Of a stretch of 56,945 nucleotides of DNA, positions 37,458 to 49,094 are shown piece after piece. A program made the translations under genes and the position numbers. The DNA is from Actinotignum schaalii. GTDB taxonomy: Bacteria; Actinomycetota; Actinomycetes; Actinomycetales; Actinomycetaceae. Below the pieces are notes generated by a model that had not been told where the DNA came from, ran no database searches, and worked only from the letters and a program-made list of their open reading frames with translations. The stretch lies in NCBI RefSeq assembly GCF_028864145.1, contig NZ_JARBHJ010000009.1:1-56945 (forward strand), in the 5' to 3' direction. Every line of letters starts with the position of its first letter. Position 1 is the first letter of the stretch.

Positions 37458-37489
37458 AGTGGGGTGCTCGCTGTTGCGAGAAGTGTAGA

Positions 37490-37518
37490 GGGTCCGGTTT
37501 CCGGGCCCTTTATTTTTT
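37490..37518 (+). terminator. Intrinsic terminator after bL37
   Basis: The stem GGGTCCGG/CCGGGCCC (one G-T pair) has a TTT loop and is followed by TTTATTTTTT. Confidence 0.88.
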
Positions 37519-37789
37519 ACGACGACGCCGTTAGTTGGCGGAGTGGGCTTCGGCGGGGTACGCCGCCGCTCAACTCGATCCAAGATTCCATCAGAATAAT
37601 CCCAATAGCCACATGAGTACCAGCGGGGAGGGGGCATGTTTTCACAGCTGTACTGCGATTGTTTTACAGGTGCAGTACACCTCGGAAAACAAACCCCCGA
37701 GCCGGCGGGGTATATCCCTCTGGCGAATGCCACGGGTGGGATCAGCCACCTCTACGGAGAGCGCGCGGCTAGTCATCTATATTTTTCTT
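37519..37789 (+). other. Gene-free stretch before the MIT_C gene
   Basis: It holds no recognisable protein, though an open frame from 37535 runs through it into the MIT_C gene. AGCTGTACTGC (37646-37656) and GCAGTACACCT (37672-37682) form an 11-bp inverted repeat with one mismatch around a 15-base loop. A second imperfect hairpin (GTTTTACAGGTG against CACCTCGGAAAAC) overlaps it. Base composition drops relative to the core genes, consistent with the start of an accessory island. Confidence 0.4.
37646..37682. repeat. Inverted repeat at left side of the island
   Basis: AGCTGTACTGC...GCAGTACACCT, 10 of 11 bases complementary, 15-base loop. It could be an RNA hairpin, an operator or a remnant mobile-element end. 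Confidence 0.4.
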
Positions 37790-38362
37790 ATGGGAAAGCA
37801 TGTACTGGAAGCAGATGAGGATCATGGCGGTCAAGAATCTTTGCATTGGCATGGCCGCGGTCGGCACCGTGTCGCGCTTCCGGGCTATCGCTTCTTTGAG
37901 GAGGGACAAACTGGTGTCTCTTTTGAGACGTTGTTTGCAACCCATTTGCGTGGATGTGCGAACATCGAATTGCATGACCCGTTCATCAGCCATTCGTATC
38001 AGGGGCGTAACCTCGTCGAACTAATGGCGGTTGTGGCCCTCGTGAAAAATCCCGAAAAGCGATGCCGCTTTCGGCTGCATACACTTACGACAAAAAAGGT
38101 GGAGTACCACGGTGGTCGGGTTAAAATGTTCGAGAAGATCGCGAAAAATGCCGCGGCCCAGGGTATTGACTTCGAGGTGATTTTCGATCCGGACGCTCAC
38201 GACCGCTGGTTGCGTACCGACACCGGCTGGATCATTTTCCTAGGGCGTGGTATCGACATCTTCCATAACTTCGAGGGTGGTGCTTACGCCTTCCCTAGCG
38301 CGCGCCAAGAGTTTAGGCGGGTACGCGCCTTTAGTATTTCCTATGTTCGGAAGAATCAGTAG
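37790..38362 (+). CDS. Stand-alone MIT_C (phospholipase D-like) domain protein
   Basis: 190 residues. From about residue 30 it reads GYRFFEEGQTGVSFETLF, then IELHDPFISHSYQGRNLVEL, and near the end HDRWLRTDTGW and IFLGRGIDIFHN. These are the hallmarks of the phospholipase D-like fold first described at the C-terminus of eukaryotic MITD1 (MIT_C). It also occurs as the C-terminal domain of Lon-related proteins of BREX phage-defence loci. No Lon or ATPase part is present here, upstream or downstream. ATG 37790 has TATATT exactly six bases upstream, so it has its own leaderless promoter. The domain has only one HxD-like element and is probably a binding rather than a catalytic module. A domain remnant and an independent gene are both possible. 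Confidence 0.65.
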   Translation: MGKHVLEADEDHGGQESLHWHGRGRHRVALPGYRFFEEGQTGVSFETLFATHLRGCANIELHDPFISHSYQGRNLVELMAVVALVKNPEKRCRFRLHTLTTKKVEYHGGRVKMFEKIAKNAAAQGIDFEVIFDPDAHDRWLRTDTGWIIFLGRGIDIFHNFEGGAYAFPSARQEFRRVRAFSISYVRKNQ

Positions 38363-41615: not shown

Positions 41616-41623
41616 CTGCTGGT

Positions 41624-41860
41624 ATGAACGTTATAACCACTACCGCGGCTAGAGCGAATCTGTATCGTCTTATCGATGTCGTAAACGAGGAAAGCACCCC
41701 GGTTACCATTTCGGGGCAACGCCATAACGCTGTCCTGGTTGGGGAAGATGACTGGCGTGCTATTCAAGAAACCTTGTACTTGTCGAACATTCCCGGTTTC
41801 GTTGAGTCGGTAAAGGAGGCTCGGCGTGAGGGTGGCACGAGTGAGGCTCTCGATTGGTAG
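41624..41860 (+). CDS. yefM: Antitoxin of the YefM/Phd family
   Basis: 78 residues. The N-terminal DNA-binding domain reads MNVITTTAARANLYRLIDVVNEESTPVTISGQRHNAVLVGEDDW, and a C-terminal toxin-binding helix ends EARREGGTSEALDW. It neutralises the downstream YoeB-type RNase and represses the operon. ATG 41624 was chosen from the start of the conserved domain and the TACGCT box six bases before. It overlaps the toxin by 7 bp. The C-terminal 22 residues recur in a remnant at 42314-42379. Confidence 0.93.
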   Translation: MNVITTTAARANLYRLIDVVNEESTPVTISGQRHNAVLVGEDDWRAIQETLYLSNIPGFVESVKEARREGGTSEALDW

Positions 41861-42123
41861 AGGCGTGGTCGTTAGAATTCTCTCGCCAGGCTCGAAAAGA
41901 CGCGAAACTTCTCTCTCAAAGCGGTCTTAAAATCAAGACCGCCCAGTTGCTCGAAATCTTAACGCGCGATCCCTTTGAGACACCGCCGCGATACGAGAAG
42001 CTTATTGGTGAACTTTCGGGATGCTTTTCGCGAAGGATCAATATTCAGCATCGCCTTGTTTACGAAGTGGATGAAAAACGTAGGTGTGTCACGATTCTAA
42101 GGATGTGGACGCACTACGAGTAA
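41854..42123 (+). CDS. yoeB: Toxin of the YoeB/RelE family
   Basis: 89 residues. This ribosome-dependent mRNA interferase has the YoeB layout: basic helices, FETPPRYEKLIGELSGCFSRRINIQHRLVYEV, and the terminal MWTHYE with the catalytic histidine-tyrosine pair. The likely start is TTG 41854, inside the last codons of the antitoxin; no ATG is available. A weak TTG start keeps toxin below antitoxin. Confidence 0.92.
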   Translation: MVEAWSLEFSRQARKDAKLLSQSGLKIKTAQLLEILTRDPFETPPRYEKLIGELSGCFSRRINIQHRLVYEVDEKRRCVTILRMWTHYE

Positions 42124-42431: not shown

Positions 42432-45400
42432 CTAGTCCCGGTGCTCGTTACCGTACAAAAGCACCGCTTCGCTCACCCGAGCTTGGGAATCCGGGCTGAG
42501 CCGCAAGAGGCTGAATTCTTTGAGAATACGGCGCACGAAATCCTCATCAGGGTATTCGCCCCACCGGTATTCTCCCGGATACTTGTCAACCAATACGCGC
42601 GCCATATTATAGATTTCGCGCAGTGGAATCTCGTTGATGCCTCGGCCGGGATAGGGCCGGTAGTAATGCCAATTCTCCGGGTAGACATCCTCAGGCCATA
42701 CAAATTCTTGGCCATCGGAATCATCAACGAAAATCTGATCTTGAGGGATGAACGTATCGAGTATTTTGTTAACCTTCTCGGAAGTTCGTTGCCGCCCGAA
42801 CCTCTTAACAATCGCTACCCGCAAGGACTGCAGAGGAAGCGGTGCACTCTCTTCGATCATCTCCCGCACAGCTTCGCGAACTTCGGCTGTTCGCGCGGTA
42901 GACATGGGGAATTCCAGCTCCTCCCGACTCCCCAAGAGCGACGTGTCCGGGAGAGATAACGGTGCTGGGCATGGCGGAATATCGGTACCCCAGTCATCAA
43001 CGCTCGCGCTTATGTGACGGACAGATTCTCCGGGTTTCGTGCCGTGTTTTTCCCAGGCTTCCCCAAAACGCCAGCGTTCCTCAGAAGTATTAGTGGGATT
43101 TTCCGGGGTGGCTGGTTTGAGAGCGACCCGAATTGTACTTCGCTTCGGTTGCGGGGCAGATTGCGGGGTTGCTTGCGGATCCTCCTGGGTGCCGTGCTGC
43201 GCTGGCTCAGCCGCACGTTTCGCTTTTGTGTGCGTGCTGCGCTGCGCCGAGGGGACTTCGCGCCAGGTGAGGGCCGGTTCAGCATCCGGGTCCTGGTGGG
43301 CGCTTACTGACTTTTGGCCGGCGCTCACTGGAGTGCGGCTGCCTTCCGGGGCCGAGGTGAACTCCGGCTTCGGAGTAAGTTTCGCGCTTCGAGTCAGCTC
43401 ATCGCCGGGCACGGCATCGCTATCCGCTGCTGCCTGGCGGGCGAGTTTGGCTTTGCGGCCGGCCAGCTTCTTCGCGGCCCGCTCCTGGCGTTTTTCGGCC
43501 TTCCGTTTCTCTGCCTCGTACCGTTCCCTGGCTGCCCGCGCCGAAGCATCAATACGGTCAATAACCCCGGCCGCATCGCGACGCAGCTCCGGAAGCCACA
43601 CTCGTTCCACCGCGAGCCACCCCATCATGGAGGTGAGAAGCTGCGGAGTGATATCCCGATCAGTCACGGTGGGGAGCGAACTCCACTTTTCATCATCGAA
43701 CATGACAGCCAGAAGCCATACCTTGCTCCCCGGTTCACGCACCACGATATCGAGGGTGTAACTCGAGAGGCCGTAATCGGCCTCCACTTCCCAGCCGCGC
43801 TCGCGCAGTTCGTGCATGAGTCGGTCACGGACCGGGCTGTCATTAATGCTCAGGGCGCGGGGAAGTGCGGAACTCCCTTCCACATCCGGATCCACCGGTG
43901 CGGTAGCTGCGCCGTCGTTCTGAGTACGCGCGCGGGCCCGCAGCATATATTCACGCAAGTCCTGCATTCCGCGCGAGCGGGTGCGATTGAGGTCGATGTC
44001 TTCCGGATCGAAAGAAGTGACCACCAGCACCTCGCTGCGGGCCCGGGTAATGGCAACGTTGAAACGGCGCTCGCCGCCCTCGCGGCTGAGCGGCCCGAAA
44101 TTGAGAGGAAGAGGGCCGCCCGGTTCGCGCGGTGAAAATGCGGTGGAGAAAATAATGACATCGCGTTCGTCGCCCTGAACGTTTTCGAGGTTCTTGACGA
44201 AAAGCGGATCCTTTTCCTGTTCCATTGCGGCACGGATAAGAGGATCGCGCGAATCTTCCAGCAAGTCCAGGATGAGGTTGCGCTGCTGGATATTGAAGGT
44301 GACGACTCCGATCGACTGGTGCGCCAATGCCGGGGAATTGAGGCGCCGGTGAATATCACGCACAATTTCTTCGGCTTCCACCCGATTCGTTCGGAAAGTG
44401 GCACCGCGGCTGCGGTCGAATACTCCATCCACGCGCCGCATACTCACGCCTGCCCCGCCAAAAAGTGCCGCGTTACCGGGCGAGGGGAAACTGGAGAGTT
44501 TGCCTTCGTAATAGGCCTCATTAGAGAAGGCAATGAGGGATTCATCCCGGGAACGGTAGTGCCAGGACAGCCATAGCCGCGGCAGGCCGGACTCGACCGC
44601 CTCGGAAAGAATCGATTCCAGATCACTGACCACCGTCTCCACGAGGGGTCGATCCGGATCGTCCAGGTCCTCATCATCACCGCTGAACGGGCCGGTTTTC
44701 CCGAATCGCGTAGGCGGCATCTGCCGGCTATCCCCGGAGATAATAACCGCTTTGGCGCGGCCGATGGCCCCCATTGCCTGATCAACGGTAATTTGGCTCG
44801 CCTCATCAAAAATGACGACGTCGAAAACTACGGCAGTCGGATCCACGAACGTGGCAAGCGATGCCGGGCTAGCAAAGAAACAGGGCGTGGCTTCCAGGAT
44901 CTCCTCGGTGAATTCTTCGAGCAGTGAGCGGAAACTGCGCGCTCCGCGTTTGCGATCCAGGTTACGCCGCAGAGTTCCCACTTTCCCGTGGAGTTCCCCG
45001 GGGCGGAACGAACGCCGCGCCATAAGGGTAGCCGGTAGCGCTTGGGTGGCTTCACCCTGGATCGCGGCGAAAGCTTCCTGGAGGCGAGTGAGATCCGAAC
45101 TATTTTGTTCCGAAAGGGAAATATGACCGCTGAAAGCCCGCATGCGCTCTTCCGCGCTGGTGGAGGCCACCCCGCGGCGGAAGGCGAGGGAGATATCACG
45201 GTCGGGAACCTCACCCATTTCGATTTGGTGCTGGAATTCTTCCAGGCCGTTCTCACGCAAGATCGCGGTGGCACGGCGCCATTCAACCGCGGCAGCCAGG
45301 GAATCACGCCCGGCTGCTGACCAGCGCGGATACCATTCTTTAAAAACGCTCATCCACCGCTTCTCCGAGGGGAGTTGCAGATCGGCGGCATTCACCCAGG

Positions 45401-48400
45401 AATTCCAGGTGGTGCTGATGATGTCGAGCGCAGCGCGAGCATCATCCAGGCTGCCGGCGCGGCGGGTTAACTCCACCAGGGCGGGGAAACGGGTAGAAAG
45501 CTCCAAAGAACGCTGGAGAGAATCCGCGGCCTCCGCGAGAGCTGCCGGAGCACTCGGGTCGCTGAGAGCCACACTCACGCGCTGGCGAGCTCCCGGGATA
45601 TTCTCTAGTTCGGTCTCCAGATCAGCTAAGGCACGGCGCATATAGCTCAGCCGGCCGAGCGCGGCCCGGACTGCGTCAGGGGAGTGCTTGCCTTCAACAT
45701 CCGGTTCCCTCCCGGCGGGCAGCGCCGGAATAAGGGCCGAACGGTACGCCGCCAGGCGCTTCTTCTTCCCGAAGAAGCCGCCTTCCGCGAGCTCAGCAAG
45801 CGCGCGGCTAAGTGCGGAGGTATCGCCGTACGCGAAGAACGTGGGAGAGAAAATCTCAGTGAAAAACTCCAGTTCGGGAGCGAGCCGGGAAAGCTTATCG
45901 GCAACCGTCGCGATTTTCCACGTGGAGGAAGCCAGCTGCCGGGCCTCATCCGGATCTAAAAGGGGTGATGTTCCATCAAGTGCCTTACGTACGTCCCCGA
46001 GTGGAACACTTTCGAGGGTATCGGCCAGTTCCGGGTACTTCTCGCATTGCGCGGCCATGCTCGCGAGCCCGTCGAAAGCATGCATAAGCTCAGGTACCGG
46101 GGCGTGATACGGGCCCACCAGTCGCCAGGCGGACATCGCGGATAGATCGGTACTGCGTGCTCGCACCGCGATATTGGGCAGCGCTTCATCAATAGCGGCA
46201 ATGGTTACCCGCGCATTCGGAGCGGTGACGAAGCGTTGCGGAACTACCGCGACCGCTCCCTCACCAAGATCGAGAGACGCGGTGACGGCCGACCAGAGAG
46301 AATGCCCGGCCGCATTCATTCCGTGCACGAGCGCCGGGTAGGCCGCGAGCGGTTCTAGACGGGAACGCAACAGTGCCCGCGCATTATCCCAGCGGTGCAT
46401 ATCGTAATGAACACTCGCGTCAATCGCACCGCGCAATTGATCCCGAATCGCCTGGGGGCGTTGCTCCCCACCGTGTAAATCAAGAATAAAAGGTGCCAGG
46501 CCAATGCGTTCCATGCGTGTTTTGACGACGTCGAGCGCGGCCTGCTTCTCAGCGACGAATAGTACCCGTTTCCCCTGTTCCAGGAGATGGGCCAGGATAT
46601 TCGTGATGGTTTGGGATTTTCCGGTTCCCGGAGGCCCCTCCACCACGAAGCTATATCCCTTGCCGGCAGCCGATACCACGCGCATCTGCGCACCATCCGC
46701 GGGAATAGGAAGATTGAGTTCCGCCTCGTTCGGGGTAATCTGCTCAATCGGTGGGAGGTCACTCGGTTCCACGAAGCTTTCCCCGGGATGCAGCGTCAAG
46801 TGTTCAAATACCGGAGATTCCATGAAAATATCCCAGTGATCGCGCAGATCCCGCCACATTCCGAACGTGGAGAATTTTGCGATACCTAGGTAGACATCCC
46901 GAGTCACCGTAAAGGGAAGATTCTCGCGCACCAGCGCGGCGGAAATCTCACGGAGCGCGTAGTCAATATCAAGACCGGAAGCATCAAGTTTCGGCTCCGA
47001 AAGCGCGGTGATATGCACGCCGTGTTCCTGATGGAGCCACTCCACCAGAGAATGATTGGGGGTGGCCTCGGCGCTGTTATCGGCTTGGATCGTGAAACGA
47101 GAACGGCCCGAACCGCCCCCCAGCCGTACCGGGAGGAGGAAAAGTGGTGCGCTGGCATCTTTCCCGTTTTTACTCGTGTAGCGCATCGTTCCGAGCATGA
47201 GATAAAGATTGGCTGAGCCGGTTTCCTCCGCCAGCGTTTTCGTGGTACGAGCCAAGTTCTTAAAGAACTCGGTGTAGCGGTACTCCGTTACGTGCCCGAA
47301 TAGGATGCCGCGCTCGCTCAGTTCATCGCTCACCTCGGCATCGGATAAATCACTCACGTCCGTGGTTCCGCGCAGGAAACGATTATCGGAAAGATCATCC
47401 TGAGCGCGCATCGTAATACGATCCCCGCTGGAGATACGATCGTCGATATCCGCCAGCATTCCAGCCCGGACCTCAAATTCCAGAACTTCCTTGGCCGGTT
47501 TGATATTGAGGAGGCGGTTGCGCAAGGTGAGATCCAATAGCTCACGCTTCCAGCGCTGCACCCGGGCCGGGGCCGCATCGCTGGTATCCAAAGTGAGATA
47601 GTCCGCGGAATCTTCTCCGGTCAACTGCTGTGCCAGTTTCCCGGCAGCTCGAATAGCCGCGGCGGGGGAATGTGCGTGAGGAGCAGGCGTGGCGGCCTCG
47701 GCTGTGGCGGAGGCGTCCGGCAGGGCGGCCGCCGGCGGGGCTTGAGTGGGAAGCGGGCGCAGGCCGTCTCTGTGCGATTCCACCAGACCGATGAGAGCAA
47801 GAACAGTACCGTCTGTCAGCTTCGCCTTGGTGCGATTGAGGTTATCCGGGAAGCTGAGTGCGGCGTCGTAAAAAGCAGCATCCAAGGCAAGAACCGCACC
47901 GGAGCGTAAATAATTATTGATGGAGGCCGGTTCGGTAATAACCGGTTCACGCAGGCCGTCCTCCGTGCTCGCAATACCCACGAGGGCGTGCCCCGGCACC
48001 AAAATAATCACGGGGAGTAGCCCGCAGGATTGTGCCAGGGCCGCATACGTAAGAACGAGGTCTATGCAGGTCCCCGCTTTCGCGGTGAGAACCTCCTCCG
48101 TAGTGCGGATGCGCTGACCGGTATTTTCGAAAGAAGCGGGCGGAGTGACGTAACGGATATCTTCAGCCGCTAAAACCGCGTACACAGCCGACATAATTTG
48201 AAGCACCCGTTCGATACCGGCCTGGTAGCCCTGCACGGAAGCATCACCGGTGGCTTCCTTAAGCAAATCGGAAACCTTGCGTACCACCGCGGGAATTTGC
48301 GGGGCATTGGGCTGCGCAAAAGCTGCCAGGGACTCAAAATATGCCGGAGCGTGGAACCACTCATTCGGAGCGAGGATACGTATATCGGTCCGGGCATACC

Positions 48401-48785
48401 CGGAAGCGGAACTCCCCTCGGTACGCAGGTGCGCTTCAAGGGTGCCCGGTTGGGATTCGGTGGCCTGTAGCAGGGGATTGCTCGGGTCGAGACGGGTCTG
48501 CGCGAGGAAACGCGGTGCTACCGGGGTGGCTTTTCCGGGCCGGAGTTCAGGAAGGGGAACCGTAAGGTCAAAAAGCGAATCCGCGCCAATGCGAGCGGAA
48601 AGTTCCAGATGCGCCTGCTCGCTCGCCTCGCTATCCGAAACGTTGGTAACAAGAATGTTTTTGATAACGGGAACCTGGTTATGGGCAAGCGCCCAGCCAG
48701 TTTTCCCGGCGTAGGAGATCTCAACGCGAAGGATTCCGGATTCCACAACAAGAACGTCGACTCCCTCAGATCCCACTCCGCTCAT
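42432..48785 (-). CDS. DUF4011-helicase-nuclease-DUF3320 protein (Hhe-like defence candidate)
   Basis: 2117 residues from ATG 48785. Order of parts: a transglutaminase-like domain (about 190-330) with Cys240 in KAGTCIDLVLTYAALAQ and His266 in PGHALVGI; DUF4011 (about 405-690, RELLDLTLRNRLLNIKPAKE); and an SF1 helicase. The helicase has Walker A VEGPPGTGKSQT (about 715-726), a long insertion, Walker B VIFDEASQI (about 1325), GDSRQMPPTRF, and motif VI FNVAITRARSEVLVV (about 1575). A Vsr/PDDEXK-like nuclease domain (about 1650-1740, YTLDIVVREPG...LLAVMFDDEKW) has weak active-site residues. A charged linker and a DUF3320 domain (ERWRFGEAWEKHGTKPGES) precede a C-terminal part ending LRLSPDSQARVSEAV. 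This architecture is known from single-gene anti-phage systems. The start is uncertain: the frame opens at TTG 48932, and ATG 48785 has only AGCGGGA next to it. Confidence 0.85.
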   Translation of the reverse strand: MSGVGSEGVDVLVVESGILRVEISYAGKTGWALAHNQVPVIKNILVTNVSDSEASEQAHLELSARIGADSLFDLTVPLPELRPGKATPVAPRFLAQTRLDPSNPLLQATESQPGTLEAHLRTEGSSASGYARTDIRILAPNEWFHAPAYFESLAAFAQPNAPQIPAVVRKVSDLLKEATGDASVQGYQAGIERVLQIMSAVYAVLAAEDIRYVTPPASFENTGQRIRTTEEVLTAKAGTCIDLVLTYAALAQSCGLLPVIILVPGHALVGIASTEDGLREPVITEPASINNYLRSGAVLALDAAFYDAALSFPDNLNRTKAKLTDGTVLALIGLVESHRDGLRPLPTQAPPAAALPDASATAEAATPAPHAHSPAAAIRAAGKLAQQLTGEDSADYLTLDTSDAAPARVQRWKRELLDLTLRNRLLNIKPAKEVLEFEVRAGMLADIDDRISSGDRITMRAQDDLSDNRFLRGTTDVSDLSDAEVSDELSERGILFGHVTEYRYTEFFKNLARTTKTLAEETGSANLYLMLGTMRYTSKNGKDASAPLFLLPVRLGGGSGRSRFTIQADNSAEATPNHSLVEWLHQEHGVHITALSEPKLDASGLDIDYALREISAALVRENLPFTVTRDVYLGIAKFSTFGMWRDLRDHWDIFMESPVFEHLTLHPGESFVEPSDLPPIEQITPNEAELNLPIPADGAQMRVVSAAGKGYSFVVEGPPGTGKSQTITNILAHLLEQGKRVLFVAEKQAALDVVKTRMERIGLAPFILDLHGGEQRPQAIRDQLRGAIDASVHYDMHRWDNARALLRSRLEPLAAYPALVHGMNAAGHSLWSAVTASLDLGEGAVAVVPQRFVTAPNARVTIAAIDEALPNIAVRARSTDLSAMSAWRLVGPYHAPVPELMHAFDGLASMAAQCEKYPELADTLESVPLGDVRKALDGTSPLLDPDEARQLASSTWKIATVADKLSRLAPELEFFTEIFSPTFFAYGDTSALSRALAELAEGGFFGKKKRLAAYRSALIPALPAGREPDVEGKHSPDAVRAALGRLSYMRRALADLETELENIPGARQRVSVALSDPSAPAALAEAADSLQRSLELSTRFPALVELTRRAGSLDDARAALDIISTTWNSWVNAADLQLPSEKRWMSVFKEWYPRWSAAGRDSLAAAVEWRRATAILRENGLEEFQHQIEMGEVPDRDISLAFRRGVASTSAEERMRAFSGHISLSEQNSSDLTRLQEAFAAIQGEATQALPATLMARRSFRPGELHGKVGTLRRNLDRKRGARSFRSLLEEFTEEILEATPCFFASPASLATFVDPTAVVFDVVIFDEASQITVDQAMGAIGRAKAVIISGDSRQMPPTRFGKTGPFSGDDEDLDDPDRPLVETVVSDLESILSEAVESGLPRLWLSWHYRSRDESLIAFSNEAYYEGKLSSFPSPGNAALFGGAGVSMRRVDGVFDRSRGATFRTNRVEAEEIVRDIHRRLNSPALAHQSIGVVTFNIQQRNLILDLLEDSRDPLIRAAMEQEKDPLFVKNLENVQGDERDVIIFSTAFSPREPGGPLPLNFGPLSREGGERRFNVAITRARSEVLVVTSFDPEDIDLNRTRSRGMQDLREYMLRARARTQNDGAATAPVDPDVEGSSALPRALSINDSPVRDRLMHELRERGWEVEADYGLSSYTLDIVVREPGSKVWLLAVMFDDEKWSSLPTVTDRDITPQLLTSMMGWLAVERVWLPELRRDAAGVIDRIDASARAARERYEAEKRKAEKRQERAAKKLAGRKAKLARQAAADSDAVPGDELTRSAKLTPKPEFTSAPEGSRTPVSAGQKSVSAHQDPDAEPALTWREVPSAQRSTHTKAKRAAEPAQHGTQEDPQATPQSAPQPKRSTIRVALKPATPENPTNTSEERWRFGEAWEKHGTKPGESVRHISASVDDWGTDIPPCPAPLSLPDTSLLGSREELEFPMSTARTAEVREAVREMIEESAPLPLQSLRVAIVKRFGRQRTSEKVNKILDTFIPQDQIFVDDSDGQEFVWPEDVYPENWHYYRPYPGRGINEIPLREIYNMARVLVDKYPGEYRWGEYPDEDFVRRILKEFSLLRLSPDSQARVSEAVLLYGNEHRD

Positions 48786-49094
48786 TCCCGCTAGTGCCTT
48801 TCCGTACGGTGTTTCCTGCGCCGCGTCCTCATTGGCAATCGGCGATATTTTCGACAGTCCACCCGATATGTTACTCCGTATCGCTCCCGGGCAGGCGGGT
48901 ATTTTAGTCCGCGGAACGATGCGCGCGTCCAATATGTGAACAATGCGTCTCAGAATCTGGAATTTACATTAGTCTCCAGAGTGCGCGGTTTCCCGGCGCG
49001 GTAGGCGCCGGGCGGCGTCGTACTAGAAACGAACTCCGCGTGAAGGTTTCACTCGGAAACGGAACCACCCACGGCAGAAGAGAAGGAGGCCCGC
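48786..49094. other. Divergent intergenic region, DUF4011 gene / YrdC gene
   Basis: No gene is recognised. Part of it may be coding if the helicase protein starts at TTG 48932. CCCGGCGC/GCGCCGGG (48992-49012) is a perfect 8-bp stem with a 5-base loop, followed at once by a GGCGTCGTAC motif (49014-49023). Promoters for both genes should lie here but no consensus pair is clear. Confidence 0.4.

What the first reader, a model, noticed from the sequence alone, without database searches (positions are those of the whole stretch)
37790..38362. Stand-alone MIT_C phospholipase D-like protein, a BREX-type domain without its Lon partner
GYRFFEEGQTGVSFETLF and HDRWLRTDTGW...LGRGIDIF are signatures of the MIT_C domain that ends Lon-related proteins in BREX loci. 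Here it is a separate 190-residue gene with its own leaderless promoter and no Lon or ATPase part nearby. It may be a solo anti-phage or membrane-associated factor, or a split component acting in trans.
Basis: partly seen in the sequence, partly recalled or inferred. Interest (0 to 1): 0.7.

Follow-up and report, generated by a model that had tools for sequence, protein, structure and literature searches.

The report
Orphaned tail of a phage-defence protein
In Actinotignum bacteria the last domain of a phage-defence protein (BrxL) survives as a small gene of its own, kept intact by natural selection although the rest of that defence system was not found, so it probably does a job by itself.

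Summary
The gene at 37790-38362 (190 aa) is one full-length MIT_C domain (PF16565, 105 bits). It matches only the C-terminus of BrxL (535-696 of 698) and the phospholipase-D-fold domain of human MITD1 (profile E 1e-35). It is not a decaying fragment: it lies intact at one chromosomal place in 5 of 6 Actinotignum genomes, with dN/dS 0.13-0.20 in the pairs divergent enough to count. A tree nests it inside BrxL (100/98). PglZ was found in 0 of 6 Actinotignum genomes and no other BrxL part in any. A 2026 survey (PMC12839542, section 19 read) says 1030 of 2913 BrxLs end in an HKD-type DNase with K changed to R; the window gene carries that motif. Best reading: a domesticated, stand-alone nuclease-like restriction factor. 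Activity is untested and a membrane role is not excluded. The two allele classes differ by dS about 1.0, against 0.007-0.43 for the same pairs in flanking genes, and do not group as the flanks do. No structure was predicted; the queue was full each time.

The parts
37790..38362 (+). solo MIT_C gene, 190 aa
   Evidence: PF16565 full length, 105.3 bits; PADLOC BrxL 117.6 bits, profile 535-696 of 698; orthologues in 4 of 5 other Actinotignum genomes
37913..38350 (+). MIT_C (phospholipase-D-like) domain
   Evidence: relation to solved MITD1 structures 2ymb/4a5z, profile E 1e-35 and 2.1e-35
38198..38221 (+). H137-x-R139-x4-D144, HKD-like motif with K changed to R
   Evidence: H and R in 35 of 35 aligned rows, D in 27 of 35
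38243..38257 (+). G152-R153-G154-x-D156, conserved pocket motif
   Evidence: G154 and D156 in 35 of 35 rows
37733..37789 (+). conserved upstream block with TATATT at 37778-37783, candidate leaderless promoter
   Evidence: conserved in 5 of 5 genomes; not found by the sigma-70 scan
37485..37513 (+). terminator-like hairpin closing the upstream operon
37637..37691 (.). imperfect palindrome around GTACTGC-N15-GCAGTAC, a repeat dispersed in the genus
   Evidence: arms read by eye

Best explanation
Shown: the gene is the C-terminal domain of a type-1-BREX-style BrxL that lost its DNA-binding and AAA+ parts and now sits alone as a chromosomal gene between the sigR-rsrA operon and a PadR regulator gene in most sampled Actinotignum species, where selection keeps its sequence. 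Inferred: it folds like phospholipase D, probably pairs with itself as MITD1 and other half-size PLD proteins do (recalled), and uses the retained His and Arg of the HxRx4D motif to cut or grip nucleic acid. It then serves as a small stand-alone restriction factor or backup effector against incoming DNA, with allele exchange between species. Odds of the steps: BrxL origin about 0.95; functional and selected about 0.95; nucleic-acid nuclease or binder in defence about 0.4.
For: Homology to BrxL only at its end. Tree: the 5 solos form one clade (100/100) inside a clade with two BrxLs, of G021 and G411 (100/98). Intact, same length and same place in 5 of 6 genomes. Purifying selection in two independent pairs: Fisher p 1e-6 (window-G005) and 1e-8 (G003-timonense). 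Q71, N74, H137, R139, G154, D156, R176 are invariant in 35 of 35 rows. Published view that BrxL C-termini of this kind are HRD DNases (PMC12839542). Allele classes with dS 0.99-1.12 against 0.007-0.43 for the same pairs of genomes in nine flanking genes, with incongruent grouping, and GC 0.53 against 0.62 for the window, as is common for defence genes.
Against: Human MITD1, which binds membranes (PMC6015221 passage), also has the HDR and GRGLD residues, so the pocket does not prove a nuclease; D144 is not strictly kept (27 of 35). That the survey's HKD domain is this MIT_C domain is inferred from position and the H-R-D motif; its supplements were not seen. The solo domain is basic (net +1 to +6 in 5 of 5) while 29 of 30 other rows of A2 are negative and one is +1, but further BrxLs outside A2 reach +2 and +3 and the broken G841 remnant +7, so the charge shift is weak evidence. 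No DNA-binding domain remains. No defence gene is adjacent; a PADLOC candidate (PDC-S37) lies 4 kb downstream. A. schaalii differs from the window by 2 nonsynonymous and 0 synonymous changes, too few to test.
Confidence: 0.42

Rival explanations
1. Membrane tether: like MITD1, the solo PLD-fold domain binds anionic lipid without catalysis and serves envelope or division functions, its defence past being irrelevant.
For: The only solved relatives are MITD1, whose PLD-like fold binds membranes (PMC6015221). Elsewhere MIT_C is fused to a dynamin-family GTPase (Thiodictyon plasmid), and two solo proteins of the order have a hydrophobic N-terminus (G398, G407; read by eye). The window protein is basic.
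Against: It descends from BrxL, a DNA-acting protein, not from those lineages. It has no MIT domain or membrane anchor (sequence). D144 is kept in 5 of 5 Actinotignum rows; MITD1 has N there.
Confidence: 0.2
2. Counter-BREX or partner decoy: the free domain blocks or joins BrxL of incoming BREX-bearing elements, or works with an unrelated helicase.
For: It derives from a BrxL end, full BrxLs occur in the same bacterial family (20 of 213 genomes with frames of 629 aa or more), and an SF1-helicase candidate defence gene lies in the same window (42432-48932) and beside it in G001, G004 and G005 too.
Against: No BrxL body or PglZ was found in Actinotignum, so no resident partner; the helicase is on the other strand with six or more genes between.
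Confidence: 0.12
3. Decaying remnant of a BREX locus kept by chance.
For: Such remnants exist in the family: G841 keeps pglZ 1-36, brxL 478-512 and an out-of-frame MIT_C end; G015 keeps brxL 413-696; G014 has an MIT_C piece without an ATG after hsdR.
Against: 5 of 6 genomes keep a 190-aa frame at the same place with its upstream block, with synonymous excess in two independent pairs.
Confidence: 0.03
4. Domesticated for a housekeeping role in RNA or phosphodiester metabolism unrelated to defence.
For: Fixed chromosomal place beside core genes and constraint.
Against: Absent from G002, low GC, and unusually deep, recombining alleles, which are odd for a core gene.
Confidence: 0.2

Closest known systems
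BrxL with C-terminal HKD/HRD-type domain (type 1 BREX)
   Same: The domain itself: 49.7% identity to the end of BrxL in G021, HxRx4D and GRGxD motifs, tree position.
   Different: Lacks the N-terminal DNA-binding and AAA+ parts and any BREX neighbour; basic rather than acidic like its nearest BrxLs.
MITD1 C-terminal domain (2ymb, 4a5z)
   Same: Same PLD-like domain family, E 1e-35 by profile; HDR and GRGLD retained.
   Different: No MIT domain; D144 instead of N; bacterial and BrxL-derived.
Stand-alone MIT_C proteins with hydrophobic N-terminus (G398, G407)
   Same: Solo MIT_C of similar size, 221-223 aa.
   Different: Separate place in the tree, hydrophobic N-terminus, E or H in place of D144.

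Membership tests
MIT_C (PF16565) | profile match over the curated cut-off | tested here: met
   105.3 bits, cut-off 25, positions 1-142 of 142
BrxL | N-terminal DNA-binding and MCM-type AAA+ domains | tested here: not met
   profile match starts at position 535 of 698; no body in the window or elsewhere in the genome
BrxL | C-terminal HRD-type (MIT_C) domain, one of its known end types | tested here: met
   the HRD description is from PMC12839542
BREX system | PglZ and other core genes in the genome | tested here: not met
   PF08665 in 0 of 6 Actinotignum genomes; it rang in 8 of 8 other genomes of the same call, 7 over the cut-off. A second search with a PglZ protein was also empty, 0 of 6, without a positive genome in that call. 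BrxC, BrxX, BrxA and BrxB were not searched genome-wide.
PLD/HKD superfamily nuclease | H-x-K-x4-D motif | tested here: inconclusive
   H-x-R-x4-D present: H and R in 35 of 35 rows, D in 27 of 35; R replaces K, and MITD1 shares H and R
PLD/HKD superfamily nuclease | PLD fold | tested here: inconclusive
   inferred from homology to the solved MITD1 domain; structure prediction was never accepted
PLD/HKD superfamily nuclease | phosphodiester cleavage | not testable with these tools
   needs a biochemical assay
MITD1-like membrane tether | N-terminal MIT domain | tested here: not met
   no MIT match; MIT_C and one sub-cut-off match (HA1) only

The most novel reading that the evidence does not exclude
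A nuclease domain of a large multi-gene restriction system has been cut loose and domesticated as a minimal single-gene defence factor of about 190 aa, without ATPase, methyltransferase or DNA-recognition subunit, with species-crossing allele replacement.
Probability: 0.3. Interest if true: 0.65.

Novelty: new variant of a known kind. Interest (0 to 1): 0.45.

Why it matters
What BrxL does in BREX is unsettled, and its HRD-type C-terminus has, in what I saw, only a predicted function. A selected, free-standing copy of that domain in bacteria without BREX means the domain can act alone, and gives a small soluble-looking protein on which nuclease, nucleic-acid-binding or lipid-binding activity can be tested directly. 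It also touches the question of why the same domain serves restriction in bacteria and membrane abscission in animals.

Tried and rejected
Structure prediction: alignment A2 was ready, but every submission met a full queue, so the fold rests on sequence homology to MITD1.

Mokosh-like pairing (PLD protein plus SF1 helicase): the 2166-aa helicase at 42432-48932 scores best with PADLOC candidate PDC-S37 (740 bits) and much lower with MkoA (92 bits), and it lies on the other strand; I do not file it as Mokosh.

BREX remnant through the AlbA_2 gene of A. timonense (between the upstream block and MIT_C): its protein is only 26% identical to the AlbA_2 of the G021 BREX locus, whereas the AlbA_2 pieces of the G841 remnant are 54-65% identical to it, so I treat it as a separate insertion.

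N-terminal extension read as a membrane anchor (GTG 18 codons upstream): rejected because that block varies as DNA, not as protein.

Charge shift as proof of DNA binding: weakened. Phage origin: no match in 50,697 phage records; in viral contigs the window protein found none, and the profile found 4 relatives, in frames of 693-696 aa, BrxL length.

Paper searches for a described solo MIT_C: (useless: the words matched unrelated ones). None of the listings I saw describes one, but only open-licence papers are held, and the cited Menshen paper was not held.

Full report
What is there. Window 37790-38362 (+) encodes 190 aa. Residues 42-187 match Pfam MIT_C end to end (105.3 bits, cut-off 25). PADLOC gives one family, BrxL, profile positions 535-696 of 698. 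NCBIfam gives nothing over a cut-off. Among solved structures only human MITD1 is related: E 1.2e-13 and 3.1e-13 by sequence, 1e-35 and 2.1e-35 by a profile of 35 sequences. MITD1's phospholipase-D-like fold binds membranes (PMC6015221, passages seen).

Where it is. Two orthologues carry names: Actinotignum schaalii FB123-CNA-2 (99% identity) and A. timonense Marseille-P2803T (72%). Their contig lengths equal those of G004 and G001. In 59 relatives searched beside the window's own genome, 13 rows including the own genome match: 5 Actinotignum solos, and longer frames (711-782 aa) in G021, G009, G019, G017, G040 and G054, plus 371 aa in G015 and 191 aa in G014. The place is conserved: sigR - rsrA - small basic ORF (resembling bS22; recalled) - MIT_C - PadR - DUF5808 protein - ABC transporter genes, in the window and in G001, G003, G004, G005 (gene names, the rest recalled). 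G002, G021 and G009 have the sigR-rsrA pair but no MIT_C or PadR there; G002 has no MIT_C at all.

It is a real, selected gene. All five orthologues are 190 aa and start alike. Synonymous changes exceed nonsynonymous ones per site in two independent pairs: window-G005 (pS 0.168, pN 0.037, p 1e-6) and G003-timonense (pS 0.170, pN 0.023, p 1e-8); window-schaalii has only 2 nonsynonymous and 0 synonymous differences. Between the two allele classes (window, schaalii, G005 against G003, timonense) dS is 0.99-1.12 in this gene, while for the same pairs of genomes nine flanking genes give 0.007-0.43. The grouping conflicts with the flanks: schaalii matches G003 in sigR, rsrA and aroA, but the window in MIT_C and PadR. 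GC is 0.531 against 0.621 for the window, in the lowest 1.2% of 573-nt stretches. I read this as allele replacement by recombination; balancing selection was not tested.

Origin. In a tree of 40 MIT_C domains (67 matching frames; duplicates of the same locus and two contig-edge pieces, L055 and L056, left out before the tree) the five solos form a clade (100/100) inside a clade with the BrxLs of G021 and G411 (100/98). Several other rows have long branches and unsure places. The rest of BrxL is missing: tblastn of the ORFs of the G021 and G009 BREX regions hits the window only at MIT_C (plus one ABC-transporter cross-match), the BrxL profile finds only the C-terminal part in 5 of 6 Actinotignum genomes and nothing in G002, and PglZ is found in 0 of 6 while it rings in 8 of 8 other genomes. 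BrxC, BrxX, BrxA and BrxB were not searched genome-wide.

How such a tail arises. In the same bacterial family 29 of 213 genomes match MIT_C, 28 over the cut-off: 5 Actinotignum solos, 20 frames of 629 aa or more, and G015 (371 aa), G014 (191 aa) and G841 (159 aa). G841 shows a deletion in progress: an AlbA_2 gene in two frames, pglZ residues 1-36, brxL 478-512, then the MIT_C end in another frame. G014's piece follows a type I hsdM-hsdR pair and has no ATG before the domain. So BrxL tails are left over repeatedly; only in Actinotignum did I find one kept intact across species. In the order, 27 of 396 genomes match; the short frames not at contig edges are the window, G014, G407 and G398, the last two with a hydrophobic N-terminus (by eye). 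In a phylum-wide sample 6 of 396 match, 5 over the cut-off. In plasmids 25 of 72,556 records match, including a dynamin-MIT_C and an IF2_N-MIT_C fusion; in phages 0 of 50,697.

How it may work. A 2026 survey (PMC12839542; abstract, section 19 and passages seen) reports that in 1030 of 2913 BrxL-bearing type 1 BREX taxa the Lon-like end is replaced by an HKD-type endoDNase with K changed to R, 'likely' active. The MIT_C end of BrxL sits at the same position and has H-x-R-x4-D, so I take them to be the same domain; I could not see the supplement to confirm it. The window gene keeps H137, R139 and D144, and the residues Q71, N74, G154, D156 and R176 that are invariant in 35 of 35 rows. MITD1 shares H, R and GRGLD but has N at D144; D144 itself is D in 27 of 35 rows. 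The solo domain is basic (net +1 to +6 in 5 rows; three counted from residue 31, two as whole proteins), against -9 to +1 in 30 other rows; but BrxLs outside that set reach +3 and the broken G841 remnant +7, so this is only suggestive. The most likely mechanism, about 0.4, is a stand-alone homodimeric nucleic-acid-cutting or -gripping protein that restricts incoming DNA; a membrane tether (0.2), a housekeeping role (0.2) and a decoy or partner role (0.12) remain.

Expression. A terminator-like hairpin lies upstream (37485-37513). The block just before the ATG, with TATATT 6 nt upstream, is conserved in 5 of 5 genomes but not as protein, consistent with a leaderless promoter; the sigma-70 scan found none.

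Verdict. The domain and its BrxL membership as a C-terminus are known; a selected free-standing BrxL-derived copy was not found described in the paper searches listed, which cover open-licence papers only.

Noticed in passing
37637-37691; also G000:C25:4910-4938 and G000:C42:6057-6085: Dispersed palindromic repeat GTACTGC-N15-GCAGTAC, all 12 sites with the same spacer length, 3/1/0/3/3/2 sites in G000/G001/G002/G003/G004/G005 (reversed-pattern control 0/2/0/0/0/1). Possible REP-like element or operator.
   Followed up: partly
42432-48932 (-): 2166-aa DUF4011/AAA_11/AAA_12/MTES_1575 protein, best PADLOC match the candidate defence family PDC-S37 (740 bits), also present in G001, G004 and G005 beside the same genes.
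   Followed up: partly
41621-42123 (+): Two short overlapping ORFs that look like an antitoxin-toxin pair (recalled resemblance); the second was not found in the fetched stretches of G005 and G003.
   Followed up: no
L057:5697-8540: Thiodictyon plasmid protein of 947 aa with Dynamin_N at the start and MIT_C at the end: a bacterial link of MIT_C to a membrane-remodelling type of GTPase.
   Followed up: partly
L059:7443-8492: Paenarthrobacter plasmid protein with IF2_N followed by MIT_C.
   Followed up: no
L016:3084-4433: A. timonense has an AlbA_2/HATPase_c_4/winged-helix gene between the bS22-like ORF and MIT_C, flanked on each side by a pair of GTGACA-N5-TGTCAC... palindromes (GTGACATTTTTGTCAC) about 146 bp apart; G005 has one such pair and no gene.
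   Followed up: partly
L093:4463-6359: G841 carries a BREX locus collapsed to broken AlbA_2, a pglZ start and a brxL end.
   Followed up: partly
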